Part shown: positions 1 through 24,527 of the stretch, in pieces
How positions within the stretch are numbered: position 1 is the first letter of the stretch
Layout: each line of letters starts with the position of its first letter
DNA from: a virus
IMG/VR virus record: IMGVR_UViG_3300021373_002893
Coordinates: 1 to 25,332 of that record
Reading direction: 5' to 3' (one strand)
DNA: 25,332 nucleotides
Notes under the pieces: model-generated
Told to the model about the DNA's origin: nothing
The model's database searches: none
Seen by the model: the letters and a program-made list of their open reading frames with translations, nothing else
Translations under genes and position numbers: made by a program

Positions 1-1338
1 GAAACAATATTTAACTGTGAGTATCCTGCTAACATCAAAACACTTTGGAAACATCAAGGTGGGCGTGGACCTTATATGAGTGCTAAAATGACAATACCTA
101 GTGAACGTGAAGGCGAAAGCGGAACACATGAATTAATTATTGATGATACAGCAGGCATTGTAAAAGCATATGAAGCAGTAACACAGTATTGCGGTTGGCA
201 ACCTATTGAAGCAGGTAAAACAATGGGCTTATCACCATATGGTAAACCTAATGACGGCATACCACAAATTTACACAGACGACGGTGACAATGAATGGGTA
301 TCTGCTAATAGAAATATAATCATTCCAACTTATCCTAATGGTGCAGTTGTAAATGAAAACAGATACGAAACTCTTAAAACAGAACAAAGTGCCTACGAAA
401 ATAGAGAAGATTTAACCAAATTACAAAGCCGTAGAGATATGGCGTATGCAATACAAAAAGAATCTCAAGAACGTGTATTAGAACTTATACTTAAAGCAGT
501 TGAAATGACTGGTAATAAAAATGTTGTATTAAGTGGTGGATACGGTTTAAATTGTGTTGCTAATTATTATTTCTTAGAAACTTTAAACAAACATGACATT
601 AAATTATATGTAGAACCTATATCAAGTGATGCAGGAACATGTATTGGTGCGGCAATGTTACATTACCATCACATGATGCAAGATGATACTCAACGTCCTT
701 ATGCAGATAGTTTGTATTTAGGTCCTGCGTATTGTCATTCAGAAGAAGAAATAAATGCAGTTGTAGAAAAATATGACGCAGAAATAAAAGATGCAGAAAA
801 TAAAGATGTAATAGAATTATTAACAAATAAAAACATTGTTGCTTTATTTCAAGGACGTAGTGAATCAGGACCACGTGCTTTAGGTAATAGAAGTTTATTG
901 TTTGATCCATCTTATGAAGATGGTAAAGACCATGTTAACAAAGTAAAACGTAGAGAATACTTTAGACCATTTGCAGGAAGTATACTGCATGAACATGCAG
1001 ACGAATGGTTTGATATGAAAGGTATGGAACAATCTCCGCATATGATGTATGCAATGGATTGTAAAGAAGGCGTTGCAGAAAAAATTCCAAGCATTATACA
1101 TATTGATGGTACGTGTAGAATACAAACTGTTAAAGAAGAACAAAATCCTAATTATTACAATTTGATAAAAGATTTTTATGACAAAACAGGCTTGCCTATA
1201 TTATTCAATACCAGCTTTAATTTAGGTGGCGAACCACTTGTAGAAACACTAGATGATGCAGTGAGAACATTGTACGATAGCGATATAGAATATCTATATT
1301 TGCCTGAATATAATAAATTAATTTGTGTGAGAAACTAA
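1..1338 (+). CDS. NodU/TobZ-type carbamoyltransferase (5' end outside window)
   Basis: The reading frame is open from base 1, so the N-terminus lies upstream and the ATG at 76 is internal; 445 codons are visible. Seen: MGLSPYGKP at about 223-249, LSGGYGLNCVAN at about 529-564, and GRSESGPRALGNRS at about 853-894 followed by a YFRPFAGSIL stretch. Near the end is LFNTSFNLGGEP. These are the signatures of the Kae1-like domain and the C-terminal domain of NodU/TobZ O-carbamoyltransferases, which use carbamoyl phosphate and ATP to carbamoylate a hydroxyl group on a sugar or natural product. From memory, a phage enzyme of this general type modifies hydroxymethylcytosine in DNA, so the substrate may be a sugar or a base. 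The gene is first in a run of overlapping plus-strand accessory genes, and its stop shares one base with the next start. Confidence 0.9.
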   Translation, partial: ETIFNCEYPANIKTLWKHQGGRGPYMSAKMTIPSEREGESGTHELIIDDTAGIVKAYEAVTQYCGWQPIEAGKTMGLSPYGKPNDGIPQIYTDDGDNEWVSANRNIIIPTYPNGAVVNENRYETLKTEQSAYENREDLTKLQSRRDMAYAIQKESQERVLELILKAVEMTGNKNVVLSGGYGLNCVANYYFLETLNKHDIKLYVEPISSDAGTCIGAAMLHYHHMMQDDTQRPYADSLYLGPAYCHSEEEINAVVEKYDAEIKDAENKDVIELLTNKNIVALFQGRSESGPRALGNRSLLFDPSYEDGKDHVNKVKRREYFRPFAGSILHEHADEWFDMKGMEQSPHMMYAMDCKEGVAEKIPSIIHIDGTCRIQTVKEEQNPNYYNLIKDFYDKTGLPILFNTSFNLGGEPLVETLDDAVRTLYDSDIEYLYLPEYNKLICVRN

Positions 1339-2090
1339 TGACAATCAAAACAAAAATATTGGAGCATATCCAAGGTAACTTCTCCGATACATTTTCTTTA
1401 CAACAAGAATATAGAAGCCATCCTGGTTACAGTAAACTTGAAATAAAAAACTTTTTGCCTTATGATCTTGTACAAGATATGGCTAAAGAACTTGACGACA
1501 TACCTTTAAAAGATTGTAAAAAGTTTACAAGAAAAGGTAGTTGTATGTATGAATACAATAAAGTAGATAATACACCTATTCAAGATGCTGTTGTTAGTGC
1601 ATTGCATGGTGCAACTTTTTTAAAGTGGCTTCAAGAAATTACAGATACTGTAGATTTAATACCAGACCCACACTTAGTAGGTGCAGGATATTGTAAAGCA
1701 TTTACAGGAGATAGTTTAAAAGTTCATACTGATTTTAACTGGAATGAACAAATTAGATTACACAGACGTTTAAGTGTTATAATATATCTCAATCCTAAAT
1801 GGCAAGAAAGTTGGGGCGGCAACTTAGATTTTTATGATACTGATAGAGAAACTGTTGTTAGTCGTGTTGTACCAGATGCAGGTAATTTAGTAGTATGGAG
1901 TTATAATAATCTTGCTTATCATGGATATCCTGAGCCAATGAAACTTCCTACAGGAATGAGTAGAAAAAACTTAAGATTGTTTTACTATGTAAGTAATGCA
2001 AAACACGATGATAAATTTCCTCCACATAGAAGTTTATATTGGTTTGACGATAAAGAAAAGGTTCCATACGATAAGCCATGGGAAAAATAA
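1338..2090 (+). CDS. 2OG-Fe(II) oxygenase, prolyl-4-hydroxylase-like
   Basis: This 250-residue protein starts at ATG 1338, which overlaps the upstream stop by one base; a TTG 15 bases earlier is possible but less likely. The double-stranded beta-helix core is clear: H130-x-D132, a YLNPKWQESWGGNLDFYD stretch typical of the prolyl-4-hydroxylase superfamily, distal H195 and R213 for the 2-oxoglutarate carboxylate. Such enzymes couple decarboxylation of 2-oxoglutarate to hydroxylation of a peptide, sugar or small molecule. Similar genes are frequent in marine myoviruses, mostly with unknown substrate. It sits between a carbamoyltransferase and a second oxygenase-like gene, overlapping the latter by 13 bases, which implies translational coupling. 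A hydroxyl made here could be the acceptor for the carbamoyltransferase; that link is inference. Confidence 0.88.
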   Translation: MTIKTKILEHIQGNFSDTFSLQQEYRSHPGYSKLEIKNFLPYDLVQDMAKELDDIPLKDCKKFTRKGSCMYEYNKVDNTPIQDAVVSALHGATFLKWLQEITDTVDLIPDPHLVGAGYCKAFTGDSLKVHTDFNWNEQIRLHRRLSVIIYLNPKWQESWGGNLDFYDTDRETVVSRVVPDAGNLVVWSYNNLAYHGYPEPMKLPTGMSRKNLRLFYYVSNAKHDDKFPPHRSLYWFDDKEKVPYDKPWEK

Positions 2091-2596
2091 AATTACAAAT
2101 TCCACAATTTGATTATAAGAATCTTACATGGGTGAAAGAAGATAATGTAACCATACTAGATCGTGCTGACGAATTCGAAAAACAAAATTTACAATATATT
2201 AAGGTAGGATACAACAATCTCAATAGTATGTACTATAGGGCATTTGAAGTATCTGAAGATATACACAATTTCTGTAAAACATTATTTCCTAGGTACAGCG
2301 TAGGAGTAATGAAACAACCTCCAGGTCAAACATTACCTAGTCACGAAGATACATTTTTTAAATTTGCTAAAACTAACGATATTGATCCTTATCAATGCTG
2401 TAGAGTCAATATTTTCTTAGAAGATTGGCAAAGTGGACATTATTTTGAAATAAATGAAAAAAGTGTCTTGCATTGGAAGCGTGGTGATGCTATAATAATA
2501 CGTAGAGACCAAATGCATTTAAGTGGAAATATGGGTATGACCACAAAGTACACAATGCAAGTTACTGGAGTATATGATGAATTTACGTGGCGCTAA
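2078..2596 (+). CDS. Small 2OG-Fe(II) oxygenase-like protein
   Basis: This 172-residue protein overlaps its upstream neighbour by 13 bases and its downstream neighbour by 23. It has a probable metal triad: H89-x-D91 (in SHED) and H147 (in QMHLSG), separated by a beta-rich stretch with LEDW at about 114-117 and a KRGDAIIIRRDQ strand before the distal histidine. The order and spacing fit a jelly-roll 2OG/Fe(II) oxygenase such as those of the aspartyl-hydroxylase or phytanoyl-hydroxylase type. The arginine usually found about ten residues after the distal histidine is not clear; K157 is the nearest basic residue. It could instead be a non-oxygenase cupin-fold protein. The substrate is unknown. 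Its place inside the overlapping gene run suggests it acts in the same modification pathway. Confidence 0.65.
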   Translation: MGKIKLQIPQFDYKNLTWVKEDNVTILDRADEFEKQNLQYIKVGYNNLNSMYYRAFEVSEDIHNFCKTLFPRYSVGVMKQPPGQTLPSHEDTFFKFAKTNDIDPYQCCRVNIFLEDWQSGHYFEINEKSVLHWKRGDAIIIRRDQMHLSGNMGMTTKYTMQVTGVYDEFTWR

Positions 2597-3437
2597 ACCT
2601 GTTGTTGATAACTTTTTTAAAGACTACATTAGTAAAATAGATTGTAGTGCAGATCTATATAATGAAAAATTGCCACAAGTATTTACAGACAATTTTTATA
2701 ATTGGATAAGCAGTAGTGAACTTAATACACTACTTGGCTTAGATTGTTTTCCTAGCAAACGTCTTGTGTGCGGCACAGCACAGGCATTTGACCACTTTTA
2801 CCTAAAACATAAGGATAGACGCTTTAGATTCTATAAGGGCGAATTTATGTACCACAGTGCTTGTTTAAAGCATGGTTTTACGTGGGAATACATTGAGGAC
2901 GCAAGACTGCATAATAATGATGCTGTAATTATAAGTGTACCATTTAGTGATGCAGGCACACAATTACCAATGGACAATTTGCTGTATAATTGTTATGGAA
3001 TGGATATTCCTGTGCTATTAGATTTTGCATATTATCCTTGCACAAAAAATATTAATTTAGATTTAGAAAAATTTAGTGCAGTTGAAACAATTACGTTCAG
3101 TATAAGCAAAGCATTTTATGGTGCTGAATTTTTACGTGTAGGTATGCGTTTACAACGTGAAGATAAAGATGACGGTATTGATGTATTCAATTCTGTTGAA
3201 ATGATTAACAGAGTACCGTTAAGTATAGCAAATAATCTTATACAAAACTTTAGCATTGATTACAATTGGCAAAAGTATGGTAAAATATACAGCGAAGTTT
3301 GTGCAGAACATAATTTAGAAGAAACTGATTGTATTATGTTTGGACAAGGCGGCGAAGAATATGCAGAAAACAATAGAGGTGGAAAGTACAATAGGGTAAC
3401 TGTTTCAGACCTTATAGGACAAAAAATAAATGTTTAA
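2574..3437 (+). CDS. Shortened PLP-dependent aminotransferase-like protein (fold type I)
   Basis: The protein has 287 residues, against roughly 380-420 for class I/II aminotransferases. Seen: CGTAQAFDHF at 66-75, resembling the Gly-rich cofactor-phosphate loop; VLLDFAYYP at 147-155, with D150 placed like the pyridine-nitrogen Asp and Y153 following; FSISKAF at 175-181, with K179 placed like the Schiff-base lysine; and R188 soon after, as in aspartate-aminotransferase relatives. The C-terminal small domain looks cut down, and I see no clear match to the substrate-carboxylate arginine. It may be a minimal aminotransferase, a decarboxylase-like enzyme, or a protein that keeps cofactor binding only. 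The start could be ATG 2574 or ATG 2577. It overlaps both neighbours, which are oxygenase-like genes. Confidence 0.6.
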   Translation: MMNLRGAKPVVDNFFKDYISKIDCSADLYNEKLPQVFTDNFYNWISSSELNTLLGLDCFPSKRLVCGTAQAFDHFYLKHKDRRFRFYKGEFMYHSACLKHGFTWEYIEDARLHNNDAVIISVPFSDAGTQLPMDNLLYNCYGMDIPVLLDFAYYPCTKNINLDLEKFSAVETITFSISKAFYGAEFLRVGMRLQREDKDDGIDVFNSVEMINRVPLSIANNLIQNFSIDYNWQKYGKIYSEVCAEHNLEETDCIMFGQGGEEYAENNRGGKYNRVTVSDLIGQKINV

Positions 3438-3987
3438 CAAATTACAAAACTGGCTACCTGTAACATTAGTAAACGAACTAGACAAAATATTTACAGGCGA
3501 CAAAGTATCATGGATATATACACCTAGTACTGTAAATTATCAAGAAGTAAACAAAGTAGATGGTATTGAAGACAGTCATCAGTTTGTACATTTACTTTAC
3601 GATCAAGGACAGCCTGTAAGTCATTTATGGGAAGCAGTAAGACCATTAATACATTTTTTTGAATATCATAAAAAACTTCAAGTGTTCGAACTTGGCAGAA
3701 TAAAAGCAAATATGTTATTTCAAGATACAACAACATCAAACAGTTACAATACACCACATATTGACGTACATGATGATGAATGGACAAGTTTAGTTTATTA
3801 TGTAAACAAAAGCGATGGTCCAACTGTAATGTTTGATAATAAATTAAACCAAATAGATCAAAGTATTTTTGAACAAGGTAATGCAGTATATTTTCCAAGT
3901 AATAAATTACATAGTAGCACTAACCCATTCAATAATTATAGAAGAATAGTAATAAACATAACAATGAAGACAAAGGAGATAAAATGA
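3430..3987 (+). CDS. 2OG-Fe(II) oxygenase
   Basis: This 185-residue protein shows the canonical facial triad and co-substrate arginine: H110-x-D112 in TPHIDVHDDEW, then LVYYVNKSDGPTVMFD, then FPSNKLH with distal H161, and R171 or R172 in the NYRRIVINI strand. This matches the small stand-alone 2OG/Fe(II) oxygenases common in marine T4-like phages. It should hydroxylate, or otherwise oxidise, an unknown substrate while turning 2-oxoglutarate into succinate. Its ATG overlaps the previous stop by eight bases, and its own stop overlaps the amidinotransferase start as ATGA. Inside its 3' end (3974-3978) is an AGGAG that serves as ribosome-binding site for the next gene. Confidence 0.85.
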   Translation: MFNKLQNWLPVTLVNELDKIFTGDKVSWIYTPSTVNYQEVNKVDGIEDSHQFVHLLYDQGQPVSHLWEAVRPLIHFFEYHKKLQVFELGRIKANMLFQDTTTSNSYNTPHIDVHDDEWTSLVYYVNKSDGPTVMFDNKLNQIDQSIFEQGNAVYFPSNKLHSSTNPFNNYRRIVINITMKTKEIK

Positions 3988-5045
3988 CAGTAGTAAGTAG
4001 TCACAACGATTGGGATCCTTTAGAAGAAGTGTTTGTAGGAATTGCAGATCATGCACGTATTCCTACAGTTGATAAATCAACACACTCTTTTGGATTTGCA
4101 GATTGTAAGTATGAACATATTAAAGATTTAGAAGGTCCTAGCCCACAGTGGGTAGTTGACGAAGCAAACGAAGACTTAGATGGCTTTGCAAAAGTATTAA
4201 CAGACTTAGGTGTAAAAGTAAGACGCCCAGAATCAATTGACCACAGTGTTGAATTTGGTTCGCCTGATTGGAAAACTACAGGATGGTATACATACTGTCC
4301 AAGAGACTTGTTATTACCTTTAGATAATTTAATTATTGATTGTCCTGGTGCAATGAGAGCAAGACAGTATGAAACAACAGCATATAGAGATTTCTTATAT
4401 GAAGCAATGGAAGGCGGATCACAATGGATAAGTGCGCCACGTCCAAAACTACTAGATGACATTTATCAACTTGAAGACCTCAGTATTCCAACACTTGTAA
4501 ACAAAGAAATTGTTTTTGATGCACCTAACGTAGTGCGTTTAGGTAATGACTTATTATATCAAGTAAGTAATTCAGGAACACTACTAGGCGGACAATGGCT
4601 AAAAACTATTCTTGAACCTTTAGGATATCGTATCCATTTGGCAGAAAAGTTTTATAGTTATTCCCACTTTGATAGTACGGTTATTCCGTTACGTCCAGGA
4701 CTTGTATTATTTAATGGTGATAGAATTACACCTGATTGGTATCCACCTATTTTTGAATCATGGGATAAAATATTTTTTCCAGGAGATCAGGTACATGATA
4801 TTGGTACTAATTTACCTAATAATGTTTCTCCTTGTAGTAAATATATTGGATTAAACTTTATGAGTGTAAACGAAAAACTTGTTATCTGTGATGAAAATCA
4901 ACACGAATTACGCAAGGTACTTGACCAACACGGTATTGAAAGTATTGGATTGCCAATGCGTCAAGCACGTACACTATCAGGTGGATTTCATTGTGTAACA
5001 CTTGACACAAAGCGTAAGGGAACACGAGAAGACTACTTTGCGTGA
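3984..5045 (+). CDS. Amidinotransferase (glycine / inosamine amidinotransferase family)
   Basis: These 353 residues match the guanidino-group-transferring family that includes glycine amidinotransferase and streptomycin StrB1. The likely catalytic residues are all present: D179 in FDAPNVVRLGND, H228 in SHFDSTVIPLRPG, and the nucleophile C337 in LSGGFHCVTLD. The family moves an amidino group from arginine to an amine through an amidino-cysteine intermediate, with glycine, lysine or an aminocyclitol as acceptor. The sequence does not settle which. The start is firm: ATG 3984 follows AGGAG (3974-3978) by five bases and overlaps the previous stop. With a PLP aminotransferase-like gene two places upstream, one could picture an amine being made and then converted to a guanidino group; that is inference. 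The length is close to the family norm and nothing looks broken. Confidence 0.9.
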   Translation: MTVVSSHNDWDPLEEVFVGIADHARIPTVDKSTHSFGFADCKYEHIKDLEGPSPQWVVDEANEDLDGFAKVLTDLGVKVRRPESIDHSVEFGSPDWKTTGWYTYCPRDLLLPLDNLIIDCPGAMRARQYETTAYRDFLYEAMEGGSQWISAPRPKLLDDIYQLEDLSIPTLVNKEIVFDAPNVVRLGNDLLYQVSNSGTLLGGQWLKTILEPLGYRIHLAEKFYSYSHFDSTVIPLRPGLVLFNGDRITPDWYPPIFESWDKIFFPGDQVHDIGTNLPNNVSPCSKYIGLNFMSVNEKLVICDENQHELRKVLDQHGIESIGLPMRQARTLSGGFHCVTLDTKRKGTREDYFA

Positions 5046-5910
5046 TAACAATAGAGGACATTGGTTACCATTTTTAGAATGGATGATCACAACCAGTTGC
5101 GACTTGGCTTGCCCTGGTTGTGATCGATTTATCGATTATAATCATAACTGGACAGAAAGTTATGAAGATATTGATAAAAATATGTCCTTTTGGTCTAAAC
5201 ATCTAGACCCAGATAATTTTACACTAATAGGTGGCGAACCTTTATTACACCCTTACATATATAAAATAATTAAAAGCACACGCAAGTATTTTGATCATGC
5301 TTGTATAGAAATATACACTAACGGATTATTATTTCCAAAACGTCCTAAACTTATCGAATTACTTTTAGAATTAGGAAATGCAAAAGTCAGTTTAACTTAT
5401 CATAATCAAGATCCAGAAGTACGTGCAAAGATAGACAGAAATATAAAAAAATATATATTTAAGCATTATGGCTTTTATCAAACTGGCAAAAATAAATGGC
5501 AATATAAAGATGTTACATTTGAAACAACTGATCCTACAGAAGGTGGTTGGTATGATTACAGACAAAACTTAAATGGCATCTTAAAACCTTGGAAGGATAA
5601 TAATCCTGCTGAAAGTTATAGTAAATGCATGGCTAATGTTTATCCAATTATATATAAAAACAGATTATACAAGTGTCCTCCAATAAGTATGGTAGAAACA
5701 CACTTAACAAAAAGTTTTCAATTAGGAGATGAGGACTGGGCACCTTATCTCGCATATAAAGGATTAGGCACAGATTTTTTAGAAGAAGAACTAGAAGAGT
5801 TTATAGATAATATACAAAAGCCACACGAAATATGTGGTATGTGTCCTGCTAATCCTGTTCTTAAAAAACAACCAGATGCAATAGTAAAACATAGGTTAGA
5901 AAAGATATGA
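5038..5910 (+). CDS. Radical SAM enzyme with C-terminal auxiliary cysteines
   Basis: The core motif C21-x3-C25-x2-C28 (SCDLACPGC) binds the SAM-cleaving [4Fe-4S] cluster, followed by LIGGEPLLHP, the GGEP SAM-binding element. I place the start at TTG 5038, which overlaps the amidinotransferase stop; this gives 290 residues and keeps the first barrel strand (PFLEWMITT). The ATGs inside that strand would remove it, and a TTG at 5002 would require a long overlap. C197, C213, C266 and C269 (CGMC) near the C-terminus could hold an auxiliary cluster, as in SPASM/twitch proteins that act on peptides or sugars. The reaction is unknown. The stop overlaps the next start as ATGA. Confidence 0.85.
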   Translation: MRDNNRGHWLPFLEWMITTSCDLACPGCDRFIDYNHNWTESYEDIDKNMSFWSKHLDPDNFTLIGGEPLLHPYIYKIIKSTRKYFDHACIEIYTNGLLFPKRPKLIELLLELGNAKVSLTYHNQDPEVRAKIDRNIKKYIFKHYGFYQTGKNKWQYKDVTFETTDPTEGGWYDYRQNLNGILKPWKDNNPAESYSKCMANVYPIIYKNRLYKCPPISMVETHLTKSFQLGDEDWAPYLAYKGLGTDFLEEELEEFIDNIQKPHEICGMCPANPVLKKQPDAIVKHRLEKI

Positions 5911-7094
5911 GAATACCAACAGCATTTTTACAAGGCGGAGCTCGTACTTATGAAACTTTAGTTAACAAATACGAAGGTATATTAGGCTTTGCAGTTGACC
6001 AAGAAAACTATGCAGTGCAACCTAAGATGGTTTTATTTTTTGAATTTGTAGGTAATAATGCTTATATGTTACAGCAAATGCCTTTAATGATAGAACGTTT
6101 TAAAGACAGTGAATTATTCTTAATACTTGATGACAGTTACGAAGGATTAGCTGACAAACAATTTATGACAATGTTTAAAGAAGCACTACAAGGAAGTAAT
6201 TGTATAAAACATTGGAGAATATTATCTAGCAATATGAAAATGCGTGGTATATGTAAAGAAGTATTTGGTAATTCTGATAACTTTCAATACTTCAACATAC
6301 ATTTACATCTTAATGAATACGATAATATTGATATACAAAACTATGATTGGAATATAAACAAGCAACTAAGAGCTAAAAAATTTATGTGCGTAAATAGGCA
6401 GGAAAGATATCATAGACTTCTGACTGTAGATCATTTAATAAAAAATGATGTTGCAAAGCATACGTTTTTAAGTTGTATGCTAGGCGAATATAAATCATTA
6501 ATTACAGATTCAGAAAAAACATGGACTGAAAAAGATAAAGGCTTACGTAAATTTTTAGATCCTGACTTAGATAATATAAATTTGACAGATGAACAGAAAC
6601 AAAGACTGCGTTGTTTGCCTTTAGAGTTAGATGTACACGAAAATCAACATCATGCTATAAAAGTAAATATGCCTAGTTTAGAAACATATTTTCAACAAAG
6701 TTATTTTAGTATTATTACAGAAGGGGATTTTACAAGAGGTGAACAAAGACAAATGTTCACAGAAAAGGTTTTAAAATGTTTCTTATATGGACATCCGTTT
6801 GTACTTATAGGCTTGCCTGGCACACTTAAACTGTTACAAAATTTAGGATTTATTACTTTTGGTTCAGTAATTAATGAAAGTTATGATAATGAGCTAAATG
6901 ATGACAAACGTTTGGAAATGTGTTTAGCTGAGGTAGACAAATTAAATAAATTAAATATGAACGAACTAAGAAATGTTTATAATAACTTAGAACCTATACT
7001 GCATCATAATCATCAGACATATAAAGTTATAAACAGCATGCCGGCACCTAACAAATTAGCAAATGATCTAATTAGTTGGTATTCAAATGATTAA
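5907..7094 (+). CDS. Glycosyltransferase-like protein (exostosin-like C-terminal part)
   Basis: A 395-residue protein, last of the plus-strand accessory run. The N-terminal half has no motif I recognise. From about residue 180 it has FMCVNRQERYHR, then SIITEGDF, FTEKVLKCFLYGHPFVLIG, and FITFGSVINESYD. This series (a basic stretch, then a glutamate-rich 'TEK' element, a 'hPf' element and a 'GF.TF...E.YD' element) recurs in marine-phage proteins that resemble the nucleotide-sugar-binding half of exostosin/GT-B glycosyltransferases. I treat the assignment as family-level resemblance only. If it is correct, the protein would transfer a sugar from an unknown donor. The stop lies in a 23-base tail-to-tail overlap with the minus-strand radical SAM gene, and no terminator hairpin is visible between them. 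Confidence 0.5.
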   Translation: MRIPTAFLQGGARTYETLVNKYEGILGFAVDQENYAVQPKMVLFFEFVGNNAYMLQQMPLMIERFKDSELFLILDDSYEGLADKQFMTMFKEALQGSNCIKHWRILSSNMKMRGICKEVFGNSDNFQYFNIHLHLNEYDNIDIQNYDWNINKQLRAKKFMCVNRQERYHRLLTVDHLIKNDVAKHTFLSCMLGEYKSLITDSEKTWTEKDKGLRKFLDPDLDNINLTDEQKQRLRCLPLELDVHENQHHAIKVNMPSLETYFQQSYFSIITEGDFTRGEQRQMFTEKVLKCFLYGHPFVLIGLPGTLKLLQNLGFITFGSVINESYDNELNDDKRLEMCLAEVDKLNKLNMNELRNVYNNLEPILHHNHQTYKVINSMPAPNKLANDLISWYSND

Positions 7095-8013
7095 TTATAA
7101 AATCTTTTGTAGGTAAGTTTAGTTGTTGTGCGTTTTCTTTGATTAGTTGCTTCTGATCTTTGGGTAAATTCTTTATATCTAAGAATGTAGGATATGTCAA
7201 TACATTAATGTACCAATCTGCTTTGTAATTACGTACATATTTTGTAATATTTTGTATATCTTCATAGTTGTTCAAGTGCATTACTGTATTAAATTCTAAT
7301 TTGTGCTTTTTCTTTACTACATAATCAACAAATTCACAAACTTTACTCCATTTTGTGCCACCTCTAACCTTTTCAGCTACTTGTCCTACACCATCTATAC
7401 TTACAATGAACATTATGCTTTTAAAATTAGCCCAAATGCTTTCTAATTTTTCTGTAGGCATATACATAGCGTTTGTATTGTACACAACATCTACTTTTTT
7501 TGGGTCTTTAACTAATTTTAACAATTCTAAATGTCTATTTGTGCTTAACGGCTCACCTCCTAAGAATAAAACTTTAGTAACTGTATCAGGAACACTCTTA
7601 ATTGTGTCTATAGTCATGTATTCATAGTTTGCTTTACCTGTTTCACGTAACTCTTTAGCTCTCCAACTAGTGCTGAACTCTGAATTACAACCATCACACG
7701 TTAAATTACACAAATTATCAATACCTATTTCTAAATATTCTAATCCTATGCTATCTGCTTTATATTTTTCGTTAAATTCTTGTCTTAAACTTTTATGTTG
7801 TATGCTTTCTTCATAATAACATTTTTCACAACCAGAAATATATTCTCCTGCTGAACTTAATGTACGTAATTCTTCATAAGCATCGCTATGTAAGACTTTA
7901 TCTAGGTCACCGTCGCTTTGTCCTATAGAATGTTTAAATCTACAGCAAGGATATACTCTTCCGCCAGGACGTATATTTGTATGTTTCCAAAATGCACTAC
8001 AAAAAGTTGACAT
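7072..8013 (-). CDS. Twitch-type radical SAM protein with N-terminal cysteine cluster
   Basis: This 313-residue protein has an inverted architecture relative to usual SPASM proteins. Cysteines C5, C23 and C24 (PCCR) and C62/C65 (GCEKC) come first, and the radical SAM core C102-x3-C106-x2-C109 (LCNLTCDGC) follows. FLGGEPL and FIVSIDG motifs of the barrel come later. The N-terminal cysteines probably bind an auxiliary iron-sulfur cluster. Close look-alikes are common in marine cyanophages, where the substrate is unknown. The start is ATG at 8011-8013, inside the last codons of the upstream minus-strand gene (17-base overlap), so the two are probably co-translated. It is unlike the 5038-5910 radical SAM protein in domain order, so it is not a simple duplicate. 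Confidence 0.85.
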   Translation of the reverse strand: MSTFCSAFWKHTNIRPGGRVYPCCRFKHSIGQSDGDLDKVLHSDAYEELRTLSSAGEYISGCEKCYYEESIQHKSLRQEFNEKYKADSIGLEYLEIGIDNLCNLTCDGCNSEFSTSWRAKELRETGKANYEYMTIDTIKSVPDTVTKVLFLGGEPLSTNRHLELLKLVKDPKKVDVVYNTNAMYMPTEKLESIWANFKSIMFIVSIDGVGQVAEKVRGGTKWSKVCEFVDYVVKKKHKLEFNTVMHLNNYEDIQNITKYVRNYKADWYINVLTYPTFLDIKNLPKDQKQLIKENAQQLNLPTKDFIINHLNTN

Positions 8014-8431
8014 AGTCTATTTTATACCTATCAAGTTGATTATATATTTCTTGCAACAATAATTTAAGCTCTTTATCAGCATAGTAAGGTTTAGTGTCTT
8101 CATTTCTATAAGGATCAAAAAAATCTATACAATTTGGGTAAACTTTTTCTACTTTGTTAGAGTTCACATCAACAAGTGTAGGTGTTTTTGTATCAACACA
8201 ATGTTTTAAGGTTGTTCCTAAGCCTGTTACTACAAAATTACTCTTACTTATTGCATATTGTAATTCATCTTCATTATATTTACTGCTTTTTATACTTACT
8301 ACGTTAATTTTTTCTCTAAGTTCTTTGTCTAGAAAATTAATTGTGTCGTGATCAATCAAATCTTTTGCTAAAAGCAAAAAACTAAATTTATTTTTGTTAT
8401 TTTCTTCAAATAGTTGGTCTATATGTTTCAT
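7997..8431 (-). CDS. Hypothetical protein, possible GT-B-like fragment
   Basis: A 144-residue protein that I do not recognise. It is charged and lysine-rich, with a likely beta-strand FSFLLLAKDL near the N-terminus. A segment reading SNFVVTGLGTTLKHCVDTKTP at about 69-89 resembles the loop of GT-B glycosyltransferases where the donor sugar sits (a strand, then a Gly/Thr turn and a helix). This is weak and based on shape. It could be the remnant C-terminal half of a glycosyltransferase or an unrelated alpha/beta protein. It lies in the three-gene minus-strand operon, overlapping its upstream neighbour by four bases and its downstream neighbour by 17, which supports it being a real gene. Confidence 0.55.
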   Translation of the reverse strand: MKHIDQLFEENNKNKFSFLLLAKDLIDHDTINFLDKELREKINVVSIKSSKYNEDELQYAISKSNFVVTGLGTTLKHCVDTKTPTLVDVNSNKVEKVYPNCIDFFDPYRNEDTKPYYADKELKLLLQEIYNQLDRYKIDYVNFL

Positions 8432-9033
8432 TTGTCTACAGAATCTAAAATAAATTCAATGCTTACTCTTTCATGCTCACTAACATTAGTAGTTTGATAG
8501 GATTCTATGTAACTAGGAAAGAAATACATATATCCTTCTTGCATTTGTATCAATTCTTCTGGACAATTATAGTGTGTTCTGTTAAAAGGATCGTAAGTTT
8601 TATCAAACCAATGTGTATCTATAGGTTTTCTAAAATTTATACTTGCATTTTCTGCAGGAGTGTTCAAAAAGTAGATACCAGTAGCAATACTTTTGATTCT
8701 ATTTTTAGGAATAGTGTTTCCGCCTGGAGGAATAATTGTAATCCACATATCTGTTATAGCAATTTGCTTATTACTTTTAATTTTATATCTCTGCATCATT
8801 AAATTTGCATATGTTTGTATTTCAGGGCCCGAAGCAATGCGGTTAAAACTGTGTATGCTTTGTAATCCGTTAGGACTAGTCCAAACACTACTATGGTTAG
8901 ATGTATTGTAATTAACATTACTCTTATACAAGTCGTGAACAACATGCATAAGTTGATCTTTTATCTCATTATGATCCTGTACTAAGATTTTATCTATGTT
9001 ACATTCTATTATAGGGCTACTGTCAATGTGCAT
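8428..9033 (-). CDS. 2OG-Fe(II) oxygenase-fold protein lacking the iron ligands
   Basis: The 201-residue protein has the layout of the putative 2OG-Fe(II) oxygenase family often found in marine phages (TIGR02466-like): DMWITIIPPGG at 95-105, a GIYFLNTP strand at 119-126, QEGYMYFFPSYIESY at 165-179, and an R189-V-S-I-E-F strand. The metal-binding histidines do not appear. Where the family has a His-x-His/Asp element after the Gly-Gly turn, this protein reads NTIPKN at 106-111, and where the distal histidine is expected there is Y179. It may be a non-catalytic relative with a binding or structural role, or it may use other ligands. It is the first gene of the minus-strand operon; ATG 9031-9033 faces the halogenase across a 73-base divergent control region. 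Confidence 0.6.
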   Translation of the reverse strand: MHIDSSPIIECNIDKILVQDHNEIKDQLMHVVHDLYKSNVNYNTSNHSSVWTSPNGLQSIHSFNRIASGPEIQTYANLMMQRYKIKSNKQIAITDMWITIIPPGGNTIPKNRIKSIATGIYFLNTPAENASINFRKPIDTHWFDKTYDPFNRTHYNCPEELIQMQEGYMYFFPSYIESYQTTNVSEHERVSIEFILDSVDK

Positions 9034-9060
9034 ACTGTATTTACGAGATTCAGAGTACAG

Positions 9061-10579: not shown

Positions 10580-11447
10580 GTTATTTACTTTTGGTTGCAG
10601 TTTGACACAGTTCTTTTATCCTACCTGGGCCGATTTACTAATTTGGCACTACGGTGATAAATTTTCTAAGTCAGAGAATTGGGGCAAGAGCGGCGCAGGT
10701 AATCAATATATCTTTACACGTATATTTGAAGCAGATAGTATATACAATTTTACAAAAGATGATGTAATTATAGTGCAATGGACAAGTATGTTGCGAGATG
10801 ATAGATGGATTGAAGGTACCGGCTGGCATAATGCAGGAAATTTATATCATGGACAACTAAAACATGAGCCTATGACATTAAATAATTTTGACTATACAGA
10901 TCAATATCAATGGGCTGACCAAGTTTATTGTGTAATGAGAGATTGTGCAATGATAGCCAGCATTGATACGTTTTTAAAGTCAAAAGGTTGCAAATATATC
11001 AAATTTTCGTATGCAGATCACTATAACGATTTGTCAGATAAGGATAGCAATCTTGATTACAGCCAATCATTATCGCCAAAAAGTATAAATGGTATATTAA
11101 ATCAATATAAAGAATATTTAAAAACAGATGCTCCAGCAATAATGGATTGGAACGGTTACAATCCTAAAGATCCTGAAAGTTATGTAAACGGCAGGCCAAT
11201 GACATTAGCAAATATGGGAGATAAAATGGACGAAGCAAGAGCAGAAATGCATCCTTTACCATTTGAATACGCAAAATACTTAGAAGAAAATATTTTACCC
11301 CTGCTAGGTGAAAAAGAACTTAACAAAAAAGCAATTGAATTAGCAGAACATTATCAAACAAAACTAACAGAAAACTATTTGCCAGTCTTAAGTAAACTTG
11401 GCTGGATAGAACTTAACGCAGATAAGATAGGATGGTCAGATGACTAG
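10572..11447 (+). CDS. SGNH/GDSL-hydrolase-like protein
   Basis: The 291-residue protein opens with FTFGCSLTQ (residues 5-13), a GDSL-type block I with S10 as the probable nucleophile. NWGKSGAGNQYI at 36-47 gives the block II glycine. VIIVQWTSMLR at 65-75 takes the place of block III with W70 where many members have Asn, and H227-P in EMHPLPFEYAKYL gives the block V histidine, with an acidic residue just before it. SGNH proteins are usually O-acetyl or carboxyl esterases, and some act as acyltransferases on glycans. The altered block III makes a standard esterase mechanism less certain. It sits between the halogenase and a sugar-phosphate phosphatase, each overlapped by eight bases, which fits a role in surface-sugar chemistry. 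The substrate is unknown. Confidence 0.65.
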   Translation: MGRLFTFGCSLTQFFYPTWADLLIWHYGDKFSKSENWGKSGAGNQYIFTRIFEADSIYNFTKDDVIIVQWTSMLRDDRWIEGTGWHNAGNLYHGQLKHEPMTLNNFDYTDQYQWADQVYCVMRDCAMIASIDTFLKSKGCKYIKFSYADHYNDLSDKDSNLDYSQSLSPKSINGILNQYKEYLKTDAPAIMDWNGYNPKDPESYVNGRPMTLANMGDKMDEARAEMHPLPFEYAKYLEENILPLLGEKELNKKAIELAEHYQTKLTENYLPVLSKLGWIELNADKIGWSDD

Positions 11448-12012
11448 CAACCCACCAGTAATTGGACTAGATAGAGACGGCACAATTAATAAAGATATTG
11501 GAACGTATGTAAAAAACCCACAACAATTTGAACCTATACCCGGAAGTTTAGAAGCAATTAAAATGATTAGAGACAAAGGATATGATGTTGTAATATTAAC
11601 CAATCAAGCAGGCATAATGAAGAAGGAAATGATGCCTGAGGATGTTGATATTGTACACAATTATATGTTAAAATTGCTAGGCCAAATAGGTTGCAATAGT
11701 ATTAACGGATTATATTACAGTACTACTAATTTGAAAGATGATATTTACGCAAAGCCAAATATCGGAATGTTTCGCAGAGCAGAAAAGGAAATTGGAGTAG
11801 ATTGGAAGAACGGATTATACATAGGAGACAAAATATCAGACCTTAAGGCGGCTGTAAAGGCGAAAGCAAAGCCTGTTTTAGTGAAAACTGGGTACGGTAA
11901 CGAAACTCTTGAGAAACTTAACACTTTTGCTAACAAAGATCTGAAAAAACAAACAGAAGTGTACGAAAACCTATTAGAATTCGCAGAGAGCTTAACTGCC
12001 CTTACTGGATAA
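11440..12012 (+). CDS. HAD phosphatase, GmhB-like (heptose bisphosphatase / histidinol-phosphatase type)
   Basis: A 190-residue HAD hydrolase. The four motifs are visible: D11-x-D13 in GLDRDGTIN, T54-N55 in ILTNQAG, K105 in YAKPNIGMF, and D130 with D134 in YIGDKISD. Order, spacing and size match D-glycero-D-manno-heptose-1,7-bisphosphate phosphatase GmhB and its histidinol-phosphatase cousins. The zinc-binding Cys/His loop of classical GmhB is missing: the stretch at 92-105 has no Cys or His. Together with the HldE-like and HldD-like genes at 22556-24527 it could provide the phosphatase step of ADP-heptose synthesis. An alternative is another sugar-phosphate phosphatase. The stop codon is shared with the late-promoter match at 12008-12015. 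Confidence 0.75.
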   Translation: MTSNPPVIGLDRDGTINKDIGTYVKNPQQFEPIPGSLEAIKMIRDKGYDVVILTNQAGIMKKEMMPEDVDIVHNYMLKLLGQIGCNSINGLYYSTTNLKDDIYAKPNIGMFRRAEKEIGVDWKNGLYIGDKISDLKAAVKAKAKPVLVKTGYGNETLEKLNTFANKDLKKQTEVYENLLEFAESLTALTG

Positions 12013-22069: not shown

Positions 22070-22572
22070 TGTTCTTTCCTAAAAAATAATGAGATACTAA
22101 ATCTCCATTTGTTAACTATTGGTGCTCTAATACTATGTGGTATTTCACCATCAAACCAAATAGCTCTATTAGGTTTAGGTGTACAAGCAAATTCAATTTC
22201 TTTTCCGTTTTCTTTGTCAAAAAATAGGGTCTCTCCTCCCCATTCTTGATTCCATGTTTCGTTAAGATATAATAAAAATACATTTGTATCTTTATGTGTA
22301 TGACTGTAATGCACACTGCCTATATTGTCACAATTAACTATTGCAAAGTCAAAAAGTGTCGGCTTTATAAATTTTTTATATCTGTCATGTGTTAAGTGTT
22401 GTAGTATTTTAAGTTCGTTTAATGCTTCTAAATCTAGTCTACTATGTAGATAAACTTCATCAGTAGTACGTCTATCACGCCATCCAAATTTAAATGGTGT
22501 CTGCTCCATGACAGCAACCTGAGCATGTTCAAAACTATTGAAATCTAATACATTATCAAACACTTGTATCAT
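22066..22572 (-). CDS. 2OG-Fe(II) oxygenase, prolyl-hydroxylase-like
   Basis: The 168-residue protein has H93-x-D95 within SHTHKDTNVFLLYLNETW, then WGGETLFF, distal H146 in IPHSIRAP and R157 in KWRFSISLFF. This is a complete iron triad with the 2-oxoglutarate arginine, in the small size class common in marine phages. The WGGETLFF element is characteristic of the prolyl-4-hydroxylase-like group that includes the oxygenase at 1338-2090, but the two are clearly different genes. It lies between the HldD-like epimerase (17-base overlap) and the cupin (four-base overlap), which suggests it oxidises a sugar or nucleotide-sugar intermediate; that is inference. Confidence 0.85.
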   Translation of the reverse strand: MIQVFDNVLDFNSFEHAQVAVMEQTPFKFGWRDRRTTDEVYLHSRLDLEALNELKILQHLTHDRYKKFIKPTLFDFAIVNCDNIGSVHYSHTHKDTNVFLLYLNETWNQEWGGETLFFDKENGKEIEFACTPKPNRAIWFDGEIPHSIRAPIVNKWRFSISLFFRKEQ

Positions 22573-23389
22573 TTAAATATTCCTCTACTGACCAAAACTT
22601 AGGTAATTCTATATGCTCTTTTATTTTTGTCATATCAGCTTCTGTAAACACTTGGTATTGTGGACGTAGTGTTATTGGCATAGGTTCGTGTATAACTCTT
22701 GCGTTATATTTTTTAGCAACAACTTGTGCAGTATCTTCAAGATTAACTGCTTTACCTGTACCACAATTAAATATTCCACTTACATCTTTTTCCATCATTG
22801 CTTCGTGTATTTTACAAACATCATATACACAAATTAAATCTCTATTGAAACAATCACTATCTTCAAACACTATAATACATCCATTACGTGTTGCTTGATC
22901 CTGCCATTTACTAATCATACTCATTTGATGTTGTTTATGTCCTTCACCCGGACCATATACATTTGTGTATCTAAATCCTTGAATTATTGTTTGAAAATTT
23001 TCTACTCCAACATCTCTAATACTTTTATCAATTAAATATTTGCTCCAAGCATAAGGTGTTTGAGGCAGGCATTTTGAGTCTTCTCTAAAGCCGTCCATAC
23101 CAGGACCATAAACTGCACTACTACTTGCATATTGTAAATTTACACCATATTGATCGCAAACTTGTATTAATCTACTTGTAAATTCAAAATTTTGTGCCCA
23201 AACTTTGTCTACATCTTTTTCTGTTGTATCACTTATAGCACCTAGATGAATTACCCAATCATATCTAGTTACATCAGGTATTATATTAGGTACCCAATCA
23301 AAACCGTCAACTTTATGTCCTTTACCTAAAAAATAATGGACTATATTTTGTCCTATAAATCCTCTATGACCCGTTACTAGTATCTTCAT
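22556..23389 (-). CDS. hldD: HldD-like ADP-glyceromanno-heptose 6-epimerase (extended SDR)
   Basis: The 277-residue protein has the nucleotide-binding motif G7-x2-G10-x2-G13 (TGHRGFIGQN), then HLGAISDTTEKD at 48-59, YASSSAVYGP at 87-96, the catalytic Y113-x3-K117 pair in YAWSK, and GFRYTNVYGPGEGHK at 138-152. FEDSDCFNRDLICVYDV and FNCGTGKAVNLED complete the series. This order and wording, notably the SDTTE element and the EGHK substrate loop, follow bacterial HldD (about 310 residues) more closely than UDP-glucose epimerases. HldD inverts C6 of ADP-D-glycero-D-manno-heptose to the L-glycero form using bound NADP. It overlaps the HldE-like gene by 26 bases, strengthening the assignment. An epimerase acting on a related sugar nucleotide is still possible. 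Confidence 0.8.
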   Translation of the reverse strand: MKILVTGHRGFIGQNIVHYFLGKGHKVDGFDWVPNIIPDVTRYDWVIHLGAISDTTEKDVDKVWAQNFEFTSRLIQVCDQYGVNLQYASSSAVYGPGMDGFREDSKCLPQTPYAWSKYLIDKSIRDVGVENFQTIIQGFRYTNVYGPGEGHKQHQMSMISKWQDQATRNGCIIVFEDSDCFNRDLICVYDVCKIHEAMMEKDVSGIFNCGTGKAVNLEDTAQVVAKKYNARVIHEPMPITLRPQYQVFTEADMTKIKEHIELPKFWSVEEYLNDTSV

Positions 23390-24527
23390 TTATTCTTCCA
23401 ATTGTATAACTTGAACTGTAGCCTTCTACAGTAGGAAACAGTCTTACTTCTGCTAAGTCATGTCCTACAACTTCTTCTACAGTATAATCACCGCCTTTTA
23501 CTATGTACTTAGGCTTGATTTGTTTTATTATATTATACGGTGTTTCTTCATCAAATACAACCACTTTTTTGATAAAAGGCAAAGAAAACAGTGTTTCATA
23601 TCTTGTTTTCTCATCATTGTATGGTCTAGTTGCACCTTTTAATTTTTTTACACTTTTATCACTGTTCAGTCCTACAACAAGTTCATGTCCTAAAGATGAT
23701 GCATACTTTAATAGCTCAATATGTCCTTTGTGTATTATATCAAAACAGCCATTTGTAAACACTATTGTATGTTCAACATCTTGTTTTGTTAAAATGTAAG
23801 TACCACTATGCTTTACACTTTCAGTTGATCCTTTGACAGCAACTTTTAAGCAAGTTTCATAATCATAACCTTGTGTTAGTGCATATACAAAGCCTGCTAG
23901 GAAACAATCTCCTGCACCTGTAACATCTGAAACTTCAACATTATCTACTTCTACTTCATAGTTTTTACCATCAATATTAGCAATTACTTCTTCGCCTGCA
24001 TTAGTAGTAATAATGTTACCTTGCCATTCATCAAAACCTAAATCATGAAATTCATTGTAGTTAGGTTTCACTAGCCAAGCGTTCTCATAGAACCAAGCAT
24101 TTTCTTTTGGATCAACAATTACTTTGCAATTATACTTGTTAATATGTTTAATAATGTCTTTTGCTTCATCTAATACGCCTTTGTTATAATCACTTAACAC
24201 AACATAATCATATTGAGAAAAATCTGTTTGTTGGACTTGTTTTAGTACATCCATTCCATTTGCTGGCTTGTCGTCGTCTATACGTGTAATGTAATGTCCA
24301 TCACACATTATTCTTGTTTTGACACTAACTTGTCCTTCAGTTTCGAACATAGTTACATCTACACCTAAACTTTTTAGATTTTCATAAACAAGTCCTGCAC
24401 CGCCTTTTGTTTCTTTTTCTTCTATATAAGTTATTACAGGAACAGGTGCTTCTGGACTTATCCGACTTGAAGTGCCGTAAATATATTTGTCGATGATGAC
24501 ATCACCGATTACTAAAACTTTATTCAT
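23364..24527 (-). CDS. hldE: HldE-like bifunctional heptose-7-phosphate kinase / heptose-1-phosphate adenylyltransferase
   Basis: Both domains are present in order. Residues 1-about 250 form a PfkB/ribokinase-type kinase: SRISPEAPVPV at 21-31, GGAGLVYENL, and DVTGAGDCF at 201-209 with catalytic D207. Residues about 254-380 form a nucleotidyltransferase: TNGCFDIIHKGH with H266-x2-H269, GLNSDKSVKKLKG, and IVKGGDYTVEEV. The protein is 387 residues against about 477 in E. coli, the kinase half being some 65 residues shorter. The enzyme phosphorylates heptose 7-phosphate at C1 and, after a phosphatase step, joins heptose 1-phosphate to AMP. It starts in an eight-base overlap with the NUDIX gene. 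Confidence 0.88.
   Translation of the reverse strand: MNKVLVIGDVIIDKYIYGTSSRISPEAPVPVITYIEEKETKGGAGLVYENLKSLGVDVTMFETEGQVSVKTRIMCDGHYITRIDDDKPANGMDVLKQVQQTDFSQYDYVVLSDYNKGVLDEAKDIIKHINKYNCKVIVDPKENAWFYENAWLVKPNYNEFHDLGFDEWQGNIITTNAGEEVIANIDGKNYEVEVDNVEVSDVTGAGDCFLAGFVYALTQGYDYETCLKVAVKGSTESVKHSGTYILTKQDVEHTIVFTNGCFDIIHKGHIELLKYASSLGHELVVGLNSDKSVKKLKGATRPYNDEKTRYETLFSLPFIKKVVVFDEETPYNIIKQIKPKYIVKGGDYTVEEVVGHDLAEVRLFPTVEGYSSSYTIGRINEDTSNGS

What the first reader, a model, noticed from the sequence alone, without database searches (positions are those of the whole stretch)
1..9033. Overlapping carbamoyl/amidino/PLP/oxygenase/radical-SAM gene set: a candidate undescribed modification pathway
Eleven accessory genes in 9 kb, almost all overlapping, combine a carbamoyltransferase, an amidinotransferase, a PLP aminotransferase-like protein, two radical SAM enzymes, four oxygenase-fold proteins and a glycosyltransferase-like protein. 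Seen: the motifs and overlaps. Known: the same enzyme classes build carbamoylated or guanidino natural products and sugars (streptomycin-type chemistry, for example), and a phage carbamoyltransferase can act on hydroxymethylcytosine in DNA. Inferred: one pathway that places carbamoyl and guanidino groups on a sugar or base. I see no scaffold-making enzyme, so the starting material must come from the host or from outside the window.
Basis: partly seen in the sequence, partly recalled or inferred. Interest (0 to 1): 0.78.

Follow-up and report, generated by a model that had tools for sequence, protein, structure and literature searches.

The report
Phage guanidino-sugar gene cassette (inferred)
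A marine virus of bacteria carries a tightly packed set of enzyme genes whose conserved core looks built to turn a sugar into an arginine-like, positively charged sugar, probably to decorate the virus or its host's surface; the core recurs in many uncultured viruses and, in a second version, in one cultured virus where it could be tested.

Summary
The gene set is real: eleven genes, all ten junctions overlapping by 1-23 nt. It is not one eleven-gene pathway. A smaller core persists across viral contigs: a StrB-type amidinotransferase (AT, g6), a small 2OG-Fe(II) oxygenase (g3) and an aminotransferase. Of 51 AT representatives (90% identity), 24 have the window's class-I-like PLP enzyme, 25 a ~195-aa DegT-type aminotransferase instead, none both, two neither; a g3-type oxygenase lies in the fetched DNA of 45. 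The two types fall in two AT clades. Five of five bacterial contigs with the PLP gene have the oxygenase beside it and no AT nearby. I infer oxidation, then amination, then amidination of a sugar-like substrate. The carbamoyltransferase is common in cyanophages without AT; it belongs to a known fibre/heptose island that the cassette extends. Scaffold candidates (GmhB-, HldE- and HldD-like) do exist in the window, outside the stated range. A DNA-base target is unlikely: thymidylate-synthase homologue in 1 of 14 large records. AT is under strong purifying selection. Substrate, reaction order and target are inferred. Cultured phage S-SCSM2R carries the second version.

The parts
1..1338 (+). g1, Nol/NodU-like O-carbamoyltransferase, 5' end cut by the window edge (optional island gene, not core)
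   Evidence: PF16861 2.5e-60, phrog_1601 3.3e-136; full-length relative L003 4555-6354; common in cyanophages
1338..2090 (+). g2, 2OG-Fe(II) oxygenase (companion in most marine relatives)
   Evidence: PF13640 1.8e-15; in 18 of 30 close AT loci; a g2 relative, and no g3, lies near PLP in L198 and L209
2078..2596 (+). g3, small 2OG-Fe(II) oxygenase (CORE; proposed oxidation step)
   Evidence: invariant H89-x-D91...H147 in 21 sequences; model pLDDT 93.4, 2OG dioxygenase fold; in the fetched DNA of 45 of 51 AT representatives
2577..3437 (+). g4, compact class-I-like PLP aminotransferase (CORE; proposed amination step)
   Evidence: invariant G66, D149, S175, S177, K178, R187, R273 in 17 sequences; model pLDDT 89.2, HisC/CobD-type fold
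3430..3987 (+). g5, 2OG-Fe(II) oxygenase, optional insert between g4 and g6
   Evidence: PF13640 1.4e-4, below cut-off; phrog_274 3.5e-31; in 2 of 30 close AT loci
3984..5045 (+). g6, StrB-type L-arginine amidinotransferase (CORE; proposed guanidino-forming step)
   Evidence: best PDB match 1bwd, 302.5 bits; H228 and C337 invariant, position 179 D in 13 and E in 3 of 16; highest protein conservation of the five genes compared
5041..5910 (+). g7, radical SAM enzyme (companion; start TTG 5041, or 5002)
   Evidence: PF04055 8.6e-11; 18 of 30 close AT loci
5907..7094 (+). g8, unassigned protein, 'glycosyltransferase-like' only by eye
   Evidence: no Pfam match up to E 10; relatives in 17 of 30 AT loci
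7072..8013 (-). g9, twitch-domain radical SAM protein
   Evidence: NF033640 1.2e-64
7997..8431 (-). g10, unassigned
   Evidence: no family match above noise
8428..9033 (-). g11, 2OG-Fe(II) oxygenase
   Evidence: PF13759 6.9e-10
11440..12012 (+). GmhB-like HAD phosphatase (heptose route; candidate scaffold supply, outside the given range)
   Evidence: NF006506 1.4e-38, below curated cut-off
22556..23389 (-). ADP-heptose 6-epimerase-like (HldD-like)
   Evidence: TIGR02197 3.8e-64, below curated cut-off
23364..24527 (-). HldE-like heptose kinase/adenylyltransferase
   Evidence: NF008454 5.6e-77, below curated cut-off

Best explanation
The cassette is an extended version of the fibre/heptose decoration island of T4-like marine phages. 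Its conserved core is a three-enzyme route: g3 (2OG oxygenase) oxidises a sugar-like substrate to a carbonyl; g4 (class-I-like aminotransferase, or a mini DegT enzyme in a second phage clade) turns the carbonyl into an amine; g6 (StrB-type amidinotransferase) moves the amidino group of host arginine onto that amine, giving a guanidino sugar. g2, the radical SAM proteins and the carbamoyltransferase are optional tailoring enzymes. The product most likely ends on a glycan of the tail fibres or of the infected cell's surface. Shown: gene content, folds, conserved catalytic-type residues, the persistent linkage, the two alternative aminotransferases and purifying selection. Inferred: reaction order, sugar scaffold, final target.
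For: Core linkage: 51 AT representatives, aminotransferase in 49 (24 PLP, 25 DegT-type, 0 both), g3 in 45, both in 44 (3 of the 51 entered through a PLP query). The two without are L068, with 1,028 bases upstream, and L285. Gene order varies while the set persists: PLP overlaps AT, or lies about 1, 2.6 or 3.9 kb away. Two AT clades each keep their own aminotransferase. The second type belongs to the DegT/DnrJ/EryC1/StrS family (PF01041 1.8e-17 and 6.8e-16), whose known members act mostly on sugars and cyclitols (recalled), and the lysine of its S-F-Q-x-x-K stretch is kept in at least 90% of 25. Both AT clades are nearest StrB1. PLP with g3 beside it and no AT nearby in 5 of 5 bacterial contigs; by eye four of these have glycan or nucleotide-sugar genes nearby, one gene of which was tested (glycosyltransferase 2, PF00535 9.4e-25). 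Setting: the same slot as carbamoyltransferase+heptose islands of S-CAM1, S-CAM3 and S-SSM7, beside fibre genes. GT25-type relatives in 23 of 25 DegT-clade representatives (the one reference tested in Pfam was weak, E 0.0066). Window has GmhB/HldE/HldD-like genes. AT protein identity 89-92% at 53-60% four-fold-site identity against L009, L019, L031 and L036.
Against: No substrate or product is known for any of these proteins. The PLP enzyme keeps the C-terminal Arg that in class-I enzymes binds an alpha-carboxylate (role recalled), and the VIA list is headed by RohP and Plu4 with MppP at rank 10 (O2/PLP enzymes that act on arginine or similar; 50 rows span only Z 20.7-21.9), which fits an amino-acid substrate as well. 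The g3 fold matches are family-level only (TM about 0.5). The two aminotransferase types reflect essentially one split in the AT tree, not many independent swaps. Four of 20 PLP representatives without AT have no g3 or g2 within 2.5 kb (L194, L200, L203, L204); L204's neighbours do not look glycan-related by eye, nor do L125's. Fibre relatives were found in the fetched DNA of only 14 of 51 representatives. The heptose-family matches are below curated cut-offs and no isomerase (GmhA) was identified among the window proteins scanned; in 14 large AT records the epimerase model matches 10, none above its cut-off, and it also rings in 14 of 14 control genomes, so it is weak evidence. g8 and g10 are unassigned.
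Confidence: 0.5

Rival explanations
1. Hypervariable surface/fibre island without a single pathway: the enzymes act separately on several glycans or proteins, and overlap only reflects compact phage genomes.
For: Most of the eleven genes are variable between relatives; carbamoyltransferase, halogenase and heptose genes occur in cyanophage islands without AT. Sullivan et al. 2010 say that such LPS clusters may be functional or 'stuffer DNA' (PMC3037559, passages).
Against: AT, g3 and an aminotransferase occur together in 44 of 51 representatives in changing gene orders; strong purifying selection on AT.
Confidence: 0.2
2. Amino-acid route: g3 hydroxylates and g4 transaminates or cyclises an amino acid (capreomycidine/enduracididine-like logic), and g6 makes a guanidino amino acid used on a peptide or glycan.
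For: Class-I fold with an invariant C-terminal Arg (R273); RohP and Plu4 head the VIA list, MppP is at rank 10, and GntC is at rank 40 of the Foldseek list.
Against: VIA scores hardly differ over 50 entries; the DegT-type enzyme in the other AT clade points to sugar or cyclitol substrates; both AT clades are nearest to a cyclitol-phosphate amidinotransferase; several neighbours are nucleotide-sugar or glycosyltransferase genes (by eye; 79, 96 by Pfam).
Confidence: 0.14
3. Protein tailoring: oxygenases, radical SAM enzymes and AT modify side chains of the neighbouring Gly/Cys-rich tail-fibre adhesins directly.
For: In relatives the cassette follows tandem Gly/Cys-rich fibre-like genes and a tail-chaperone-like gene; g9 is a twitch-domain radical SAM; an oxygenase and GT25-type genes lie near fibre-like genes in the other clade.
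Against: 37 of 51 AT representatives show no fibre relative in the fetched DNA; bacterial oxygenase+PLP pairs are mostly among glycan genes by eye.
Confidence: 0.1
4. Virion DNA modification: carbamoyl or guanidino groups are placed on a hydroxymethylated base.
For: A phage carbamoyltransferase makes 5-carbamoyloxymethylcytosine (PMC8670742, passages). Two cyanophage records (S-RIM44, Sf-CH3) show a thymidylate synthase annotation under their carbamoyltransferase match.
Against: The known system pairs with a thymidylate-synthase homologue, and in unmodified contigs carbamoyltransferase sits near unrelated genes such as glycosyltransferases. A PF00303 homologue was found in 1 of 14 large AT records, which may be fragments, and in none of the 20 window proteins scanned.
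Confidence: 0.06

Closest known systems
Streptomycin-type guanidino-cyclitol biosynthesis (StrB1 with a DegT-family aminotransferase; pathway recalled)
   Same: StrB-type amidinotransferase is the nearest solved relative of both phage AT clades; one clade also uses a DegT-family aminotransferase
   Different: No cyclitol-making or phosphorylating gene was identified; the window uses a class-I-like PLP enzyme; a 2OG oxygenase is proposed in the oxidising place; setting is a phage fibre/glycan island
Cyanophage LPS/heptose islands (S-CAM1, S-CAM3, S-SSM7; Sullivan et al. 2010, passages seen)
   Same: Same slot: fibre-like proteins, a conserved ~350-aa protein, carbamoyltransferase, HldE-type and epimerase genes in all three; the window's 2255-aa structural protein has relatives there in S-CAM1 and S-CAM3
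   Different: No g3, g4 or g6 relative in the 15-19 kb examined of each; the window's group inserts the amidino cassette there
Synechococcus phage S-SCSM2R gene cluster (GenBank PQ898602)
   Same: 2OG oxygenase (g3 family), aminotransferase, radical SAM, amidinotransferase and glycosyltransferases in one overlapping run
   Different: Uses the mini DegT aminotransferase and the other AT clade (39.6% identity to the window's AT)
Campylobacter phage CP220/CPt10 radical-SAM + amidinotransferase module (PMC2853527, passages seen)
   Same: Phage amidinotransferase next to radical SAM genes in an exchangeable block with genes annotated as nucleotide-diphospho-sugar-transferase fold
   Different: AT 27% identical; no g3- or g4-type gene detected in 25 kb of CP220
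LipL/LipO-type oxygenase then aminotransferase step in nucleoside antibiotics (recalled, not tested)
   Same: 2OG oxygenase makes a carbonyl that an aminotransferase converts to an amine
   Different: Only a mechanistic parallel; no sequence comparison was made

Membership tests
Streptomycin-type guanidino-cyclitol pathway | StrB-type amidinotransferase | tested here: met
   StrB1 302.5 bits against 188.8 for the next PDB entry; profile 403 against 268. Similarity, not activity
Streptomycin-type guanidino-cyclitol pathway | DegT-family (StsC-type) aminotransferase | tested here: not met
   Window g4 has no Pfam family at E 0.1 and a class-I-like fold; the DegT type was found in the other phage clade only
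Streptomycin-type guanidino-cyclitol pathway | cyclitol dehydrogenase and kinase | tested here: inconclusive
   None named among the 20 window proteins scanned with Pfam, but the window is a fragment
Cyanophage fibre/heptose (LPS) island | carbamoyltransferase plus HldE/HldD-type genes next to fibre and structural genes | tested here: met
   Homologous genes in S-CAM1, S-CAM3 and S-SSM7; the part upstream of the window is inferred from relatives such as L001, L003, L004, L043 and L063
5hmC carbamoyltransferase DNA-modification system | thymidylate-synthase/dCMP hydroxymethylase partner | tested here: not met
   PF00303 in 1 of 14 large AT-carrying records; records may be fragments
5hmC carbamoyltransferase DNA-modification system | residues W408, G421, R423 (TobZ numbering) that mark the modifying branch | not tested
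   Residues named in the paper; no alignment to TobZ was made
Creatine route (AGAT then GAMT) | AT closest to L-arginine:glycine amidinotransferase | tested here: not met
   AGAT entries score 175-180 bits against 302.5 for StrB1
Class-I (fold-type I) PLP aminotransferase | PLP-binding Asp, Schiff-base Lys, phosphate Arg and C-terminal carboxylate Arg | tested here: met
   D149, K178, R187 and R273 invariant in 17 sequences; roles recalled from aspartate aminotransferase
2OG-Fe(II) oxygenase (g3) | H-x-D...H iron triad on a double-stranded beta-helix | tested here: met
   H89, D91 and H147 invariant in 21 sequences; Foldseek top match AsqJ, E 1.2e-6, TM about 0.5
Campylobacter phage radical-SAM/AT module | five radical SAM genes with AT | tested here: not met
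   Two radical SAM genes among the scanned window proteins; g3 and g4 types not detected in the CP220 stretch

The most novel reading that the evidence does not exclude
Two separate lineages of aquatic phages independently assembled the same chemistry, oxygenase then miniature aminotransferase (one class-I-like of about 287 aa, one DegT-type of about 195 aa) then StrB-type amidinotransferase, to put arginine-like guanidino sugars on their tail fibres or on the infected cell's surface, so that phage glycans carry positive charge.
Probability: 0.27. Interest if true: 0.78.

Novelty: new variant of a known kind. Interest (0 to 1): 0.58.

Why it matters
If right, it gives a concrete chemical prediction (guanidino and amino sugars) for the glycan islands of marine T4-like phages, whose function has been an open question in print. 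It offers another reading for viral genes annotated as glycine amidinotransferase, and supplies very small aminotransferases to study. A cultured cyanophage with the second version (S-SCSM2R on Synechococcus WH7803) makes it directly testable.

Tried and rejected
One eleven-gene pathway: rejected because most genes are variable. Carbamoyltransferase as a core partner: rejected as diagnostic. It is in 11 of 14 large AT records, in 5 of them within 3 kb of AT and in 6 more than 23 kb away. It is also in 117 cyanophage records of 141 matched (many are near-identical isolates or duplicate entries, and only 51 of the 141 match over 80% or more of the query), while AT is in one cyanophage record. 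Recent spread of the AT gene alone as the reason for its high identity: rejected; four-fold sites are as diverged as in its neighbours. Creatine synthesis: rejected for this AT. Saxitoxin-like pathway: the enzyme classes overlap, but StrB1 is clearly nearer than SxtG and no polyketide-type family was seen among the 20 window proteins scanned with Pfam; noted only as a parallel.

Led nowhere: the ~350-aa protein before the carbamoyltransferase (A5) looks glycosyltransferase-like to the eye but has no Pfam match above noise and no meaningful PDB match. g8 and g10 stayed unassigned. PLP in Pelagibacterales: 297 genomes searched, 4 matched, one of them full length. Three of the five bacterial genomes with PLP+g3 hold an AT-family gene elsewhere, not in the fetched neighbourhood. 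Paper searches: 'phage, amidinotransferase' 37 papers, 25 listed; with carbamoyltransferase and aminotransferase 3; 'cyanophage, amidinotransferase' 1; 'phage, inosamine' 5; a five-term fibre/radical SAM search 0; fibre/heptose/carbamoyltransferase 80, 12 listed; guanidino sugar terms 2. None of the listings or passages that I saw describes this trio. Only open-licence PMC papers are held.

Rows dropped before counts: one search used loci with an AT of at least 340 aa (30 representatives at 97%) and matches covering over 40% of a query; one search used ATs of at least 290 aa (173 loci, 51 representatives at 90%; L169, L208 and L211 entered by a PLP query) and counted a partner anywhere in the fetched DNA; one search left out those three and two loci with under 2.5 kb upstream (46 used); one search used PLP of at least 215 aa with E below 1e-20 (173 loci, 67 representatives). 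In one search two of the g2 references came from loci being counted; one search repeated the test with the window's g2 alone and confirmed both (L198 1.7e-92, L209 8.5e-33). Scans kept only the best 80 loci of 425 and of 330, and close copies dominate.

Full report
What is there. Positions 1-9033 hold eleven genes in two runs (eight on +, three on -), every junction overlapping by 1-23 nt. The window is a 25.3-kb virus record. Its tail genes and a 2255-aa structural protein place it near T4-like cyanophages: 118 phage records match that protein; the best place is in a marine single-cell virus record and the best named isolate is S-CAM3 (42% identity over 68%). The host is not known.

Identity of the parts. 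g1 is a Nol/NodU-like carbamoyltransferase cut by the window edge. g2, g5 and g11 are 2OG-Fe(II) oxygenases by Pfam, g5 below the curated cut-off. g3 has no Pfam match, but H89-x-D91...H147 is invariant over 21 relatives and the model (pLDDT 93.4) matches 2OG dioxygenases at family level (TM about 0.5). g4 also has no Pfam match; D149, K178, R187 and R273 are invariant over 17 relatives, and the model (pLDDT 89.2) is a compact class-I aminotransferase fold. Foldseek puts HisC first; VIA puts RohP and Plu4 first and MppP tenth, but its 50 rows span only Z 20.7-21.9. g6 is an amidinotransferase nearest to StrB1 (302.5 bits; next HsvA 188.8, SxtG 185.8, AGAT 175-180). In 16 relatives H228 and C337 are invariant, and position 179 is Asp in 13 and Glu in 3 (catalytic roles recalled). 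g7 and g9 are radical SAM proteins. g8 and g10 are unassigned.

What is conserved. Relatives of g6 were found at 76 IMG/VR loci and of g4 at 49. At 97% AT identity there are 30 representatives: PLP in 28, g3 in 28, g2 and g7 in 18 each, carbamoyltransferase in 5, g5 in 2. The two without PLP in that test, L066 and L068, have 233 and 1,046 bases upstream of the match. A 343-kb freshwater phage record (L055) has g3, g4 and g6 together among genes that look unrelated by eye. So the core is g3+g4+g6, and the rest is variable.

A second version. The AT of the cultured cyanophage S-SCSM2R (39.6% identical) and its relatives mostly sit with a g3-family oxygenase too, but with a ~195-aa DegT-type aminotransferase instead of g4 (PF01041 1.8e-17 and 6.8e-16). 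Of 51 AT representatives at 90% identity, 24 have PLP, 25 DegT-type, none both, two neither; in the fetched DNA g3 is in 45, carbamoyltransferase in 10, GT25-type relatives in 24 (23 with DegT-type), fibre relatives in 14. In a tree of 54 ATs the two types fall in two AT clades. One PLP row (L211, 27% of columns filled, very long branch) falls in the DegT clade and its place is unsure. This is therefore essentially one split, with each clade retaining its own aminotransferase. The mini DegT proteins keep the lysine of S-F-Q-x-x-K in at least 90% of 25. I read this as the same job done by two aminotransferases. Radical SAM relatives lie within 2.5 kb of AT in 21 of 51.

Without the amidinotransferase. 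Of 67 PLP representatives, 20 have no AT in the fetched DNA, and 16 of these have g3 or g2 within 2.5 kb; among the 47 with AT, 37 do (the g2 cases were confirmed with the window's g2 alone). The five bacterial contigs with PLP (SAR11 and other groups) all have g3 beside it, overlapping or at most 74 nt away. By eye, four of them have glycan or nucleotide-sugar genes nearby (L124, L126, L127, L128; one tested); L125 does not obviously, and L128 may itself be a phage contig. No AT was found in these stretches, though three of the five genomes have an AT-family gene elsewhere. This suggests that oxygenase+aminotransferase is the basic unit and amidination an added step.

Constraint. Against L009, L019, L031 and L036 the AT is 89-92% identical in protein while its four-fold sites are 53-60% identical; its four compared neighbours are 54-69% identical in protein with four-fold sites at 36-62%. 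The AT is held by purifying selection, not recently spread, so it is not decaying filler.

Setting. In relatives with sequence upstream, the cassette follows tandem Gly/Cys-rich fibre-like proteins, a tail-chaperone-like protein (PF16778, just under cut-off), a conserved ~350-aa protein and the carbamoyltransferase. Relatives of the fibre-like protein, the ~350-aa protein, the carbamoyltransferase, HldE and the epimerase stand in the same region of S-CAM1, S-CAM3 and S-SSM7, the structural protein also in S-CAM1 and S-CAM3; no g3, g4 or g6 relative was found there. The window itself has GmhB-, HldD- and HldE-like genes, all below the NCBIfam cut-offs of those models. Hence a scaffold route is at hand, contrary to the finding, although no GmhA was identified and the epimerase signal in other large records is unspecific.

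Carbamoyltransferase. It matches 141 phage records, 117 of them named as cyanophages (many near-duplicates), while AT matches 15 records, one a cyanophage. It is in 11 of 14 large AT records, within 3 kb of AT in 5 and over 23 kb away in 6. I take it as a gene of the island in general, not of the amidino core. A thymidylate-synthase homologue, the mark of the known 5hmC carbamoyltransferase system, is in 1 of 14 large AT records, so a DNA target is unlikely.

How it probably works (inference). g3 makes a carbonyl on a sugar-like substrate, g4 or the mini DegT enzyme makes the amine, g6 makes the guanidine from arginine; carbamoylation, further oxidation and radical chemistry are optional; glycosyltransferases attach the product to fibres or cell surface. 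The order rests on enzyme logic, on the StrB and DegT relationships and on recalled precedents (StrB/StsC, LipL/LipO). An amino-acid substrate for g4 remains possible.

In print. Campylobacter phages CP220 and CPt10 carry AT with several radical SAM genes in an exchangeable block (PMC2853527, passages); no g3 or g4 type was detected in the 25 kb of CP220 examined. Sullivan et al. 2010 (PMC3037559, passages) describe the LPS clusters and leave open whether they function. An ocean-wide survey of viral metabolic genes excluded contigs with lipopolysaccharide islands and discussed a creatine gene (PMC11360552, passages). A lake single-cell study lists glycine amidinotransferase in a table (PMC8226683, passages). 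In the listings, and the passages I read, no paper describes the oxygenase-aminotransferase-amidinotransferase set.

Verdict. A real, conserved and untested phage module inside a known kind of island: a new variant of a known kind.

Noticed in passing
window 3430-3987 and 22066-22572: Both proteins match phrog_274, labelled 'DNA endonuclease V', yet carry a 2OG-Fe(II) oxygenase domain by Pfam; a 184-aa S-SSM7 gene annotated denV lies where g5 matches. The label looks wrong.
   Followed up: partly
window 11440-12012: A GmhB-like HAD phosphatase matches phrog_1238, labelled 'phosphoheptose isomerase'; the phage family label may be wrong.
   Followed up: no
window 9041-10579: Tryptophan-halogenase-like gene (PF04820 5.9e-92) directly beside the cassette; a halogenase also sits in the S-SSM7 island.
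   Followed up: no
L003 53-2117: Tandem Cys- and Gly-rich fibre-like proteins just before the cassette; relatives in the same region of S-SSM7, S-CAM1 and S-CAM3.
   Followed up: partly
L222-L301: A ~195-aa DegT-type aminotransferase, about half the usual length, conserved across many phage loci, with the PLP-type lysine kept.
   Followed up: partly
L124-L128: SAR11 and other bacterial contigs carry the PLP+2OG pair, by eye mostly among surface-glycan genes.
   Followed up: partly
L003 2956-4011: A ~350-aa protein shortly before the carbamoyltransferase is highly conserved in 8 aligned relatives (invariant GGAGR, CEGG, GCDS motifs) but matches no family.
   Followed up: partly
window 7997-8431 and 5907-7094: Two proteins without any family match; g8 relatives occur in 17 of 30 AT loci.
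   Followed up: no
S-RIM44 (KX349294) 193936-195524 and Sf-CH3 (PV340851) 196794-198397: Two cyanophage records show a thymidylate synthase annotation under the carbamoyltransferase match, possible candidates for the 5hmC-type DNA modification.
   Followed up: no
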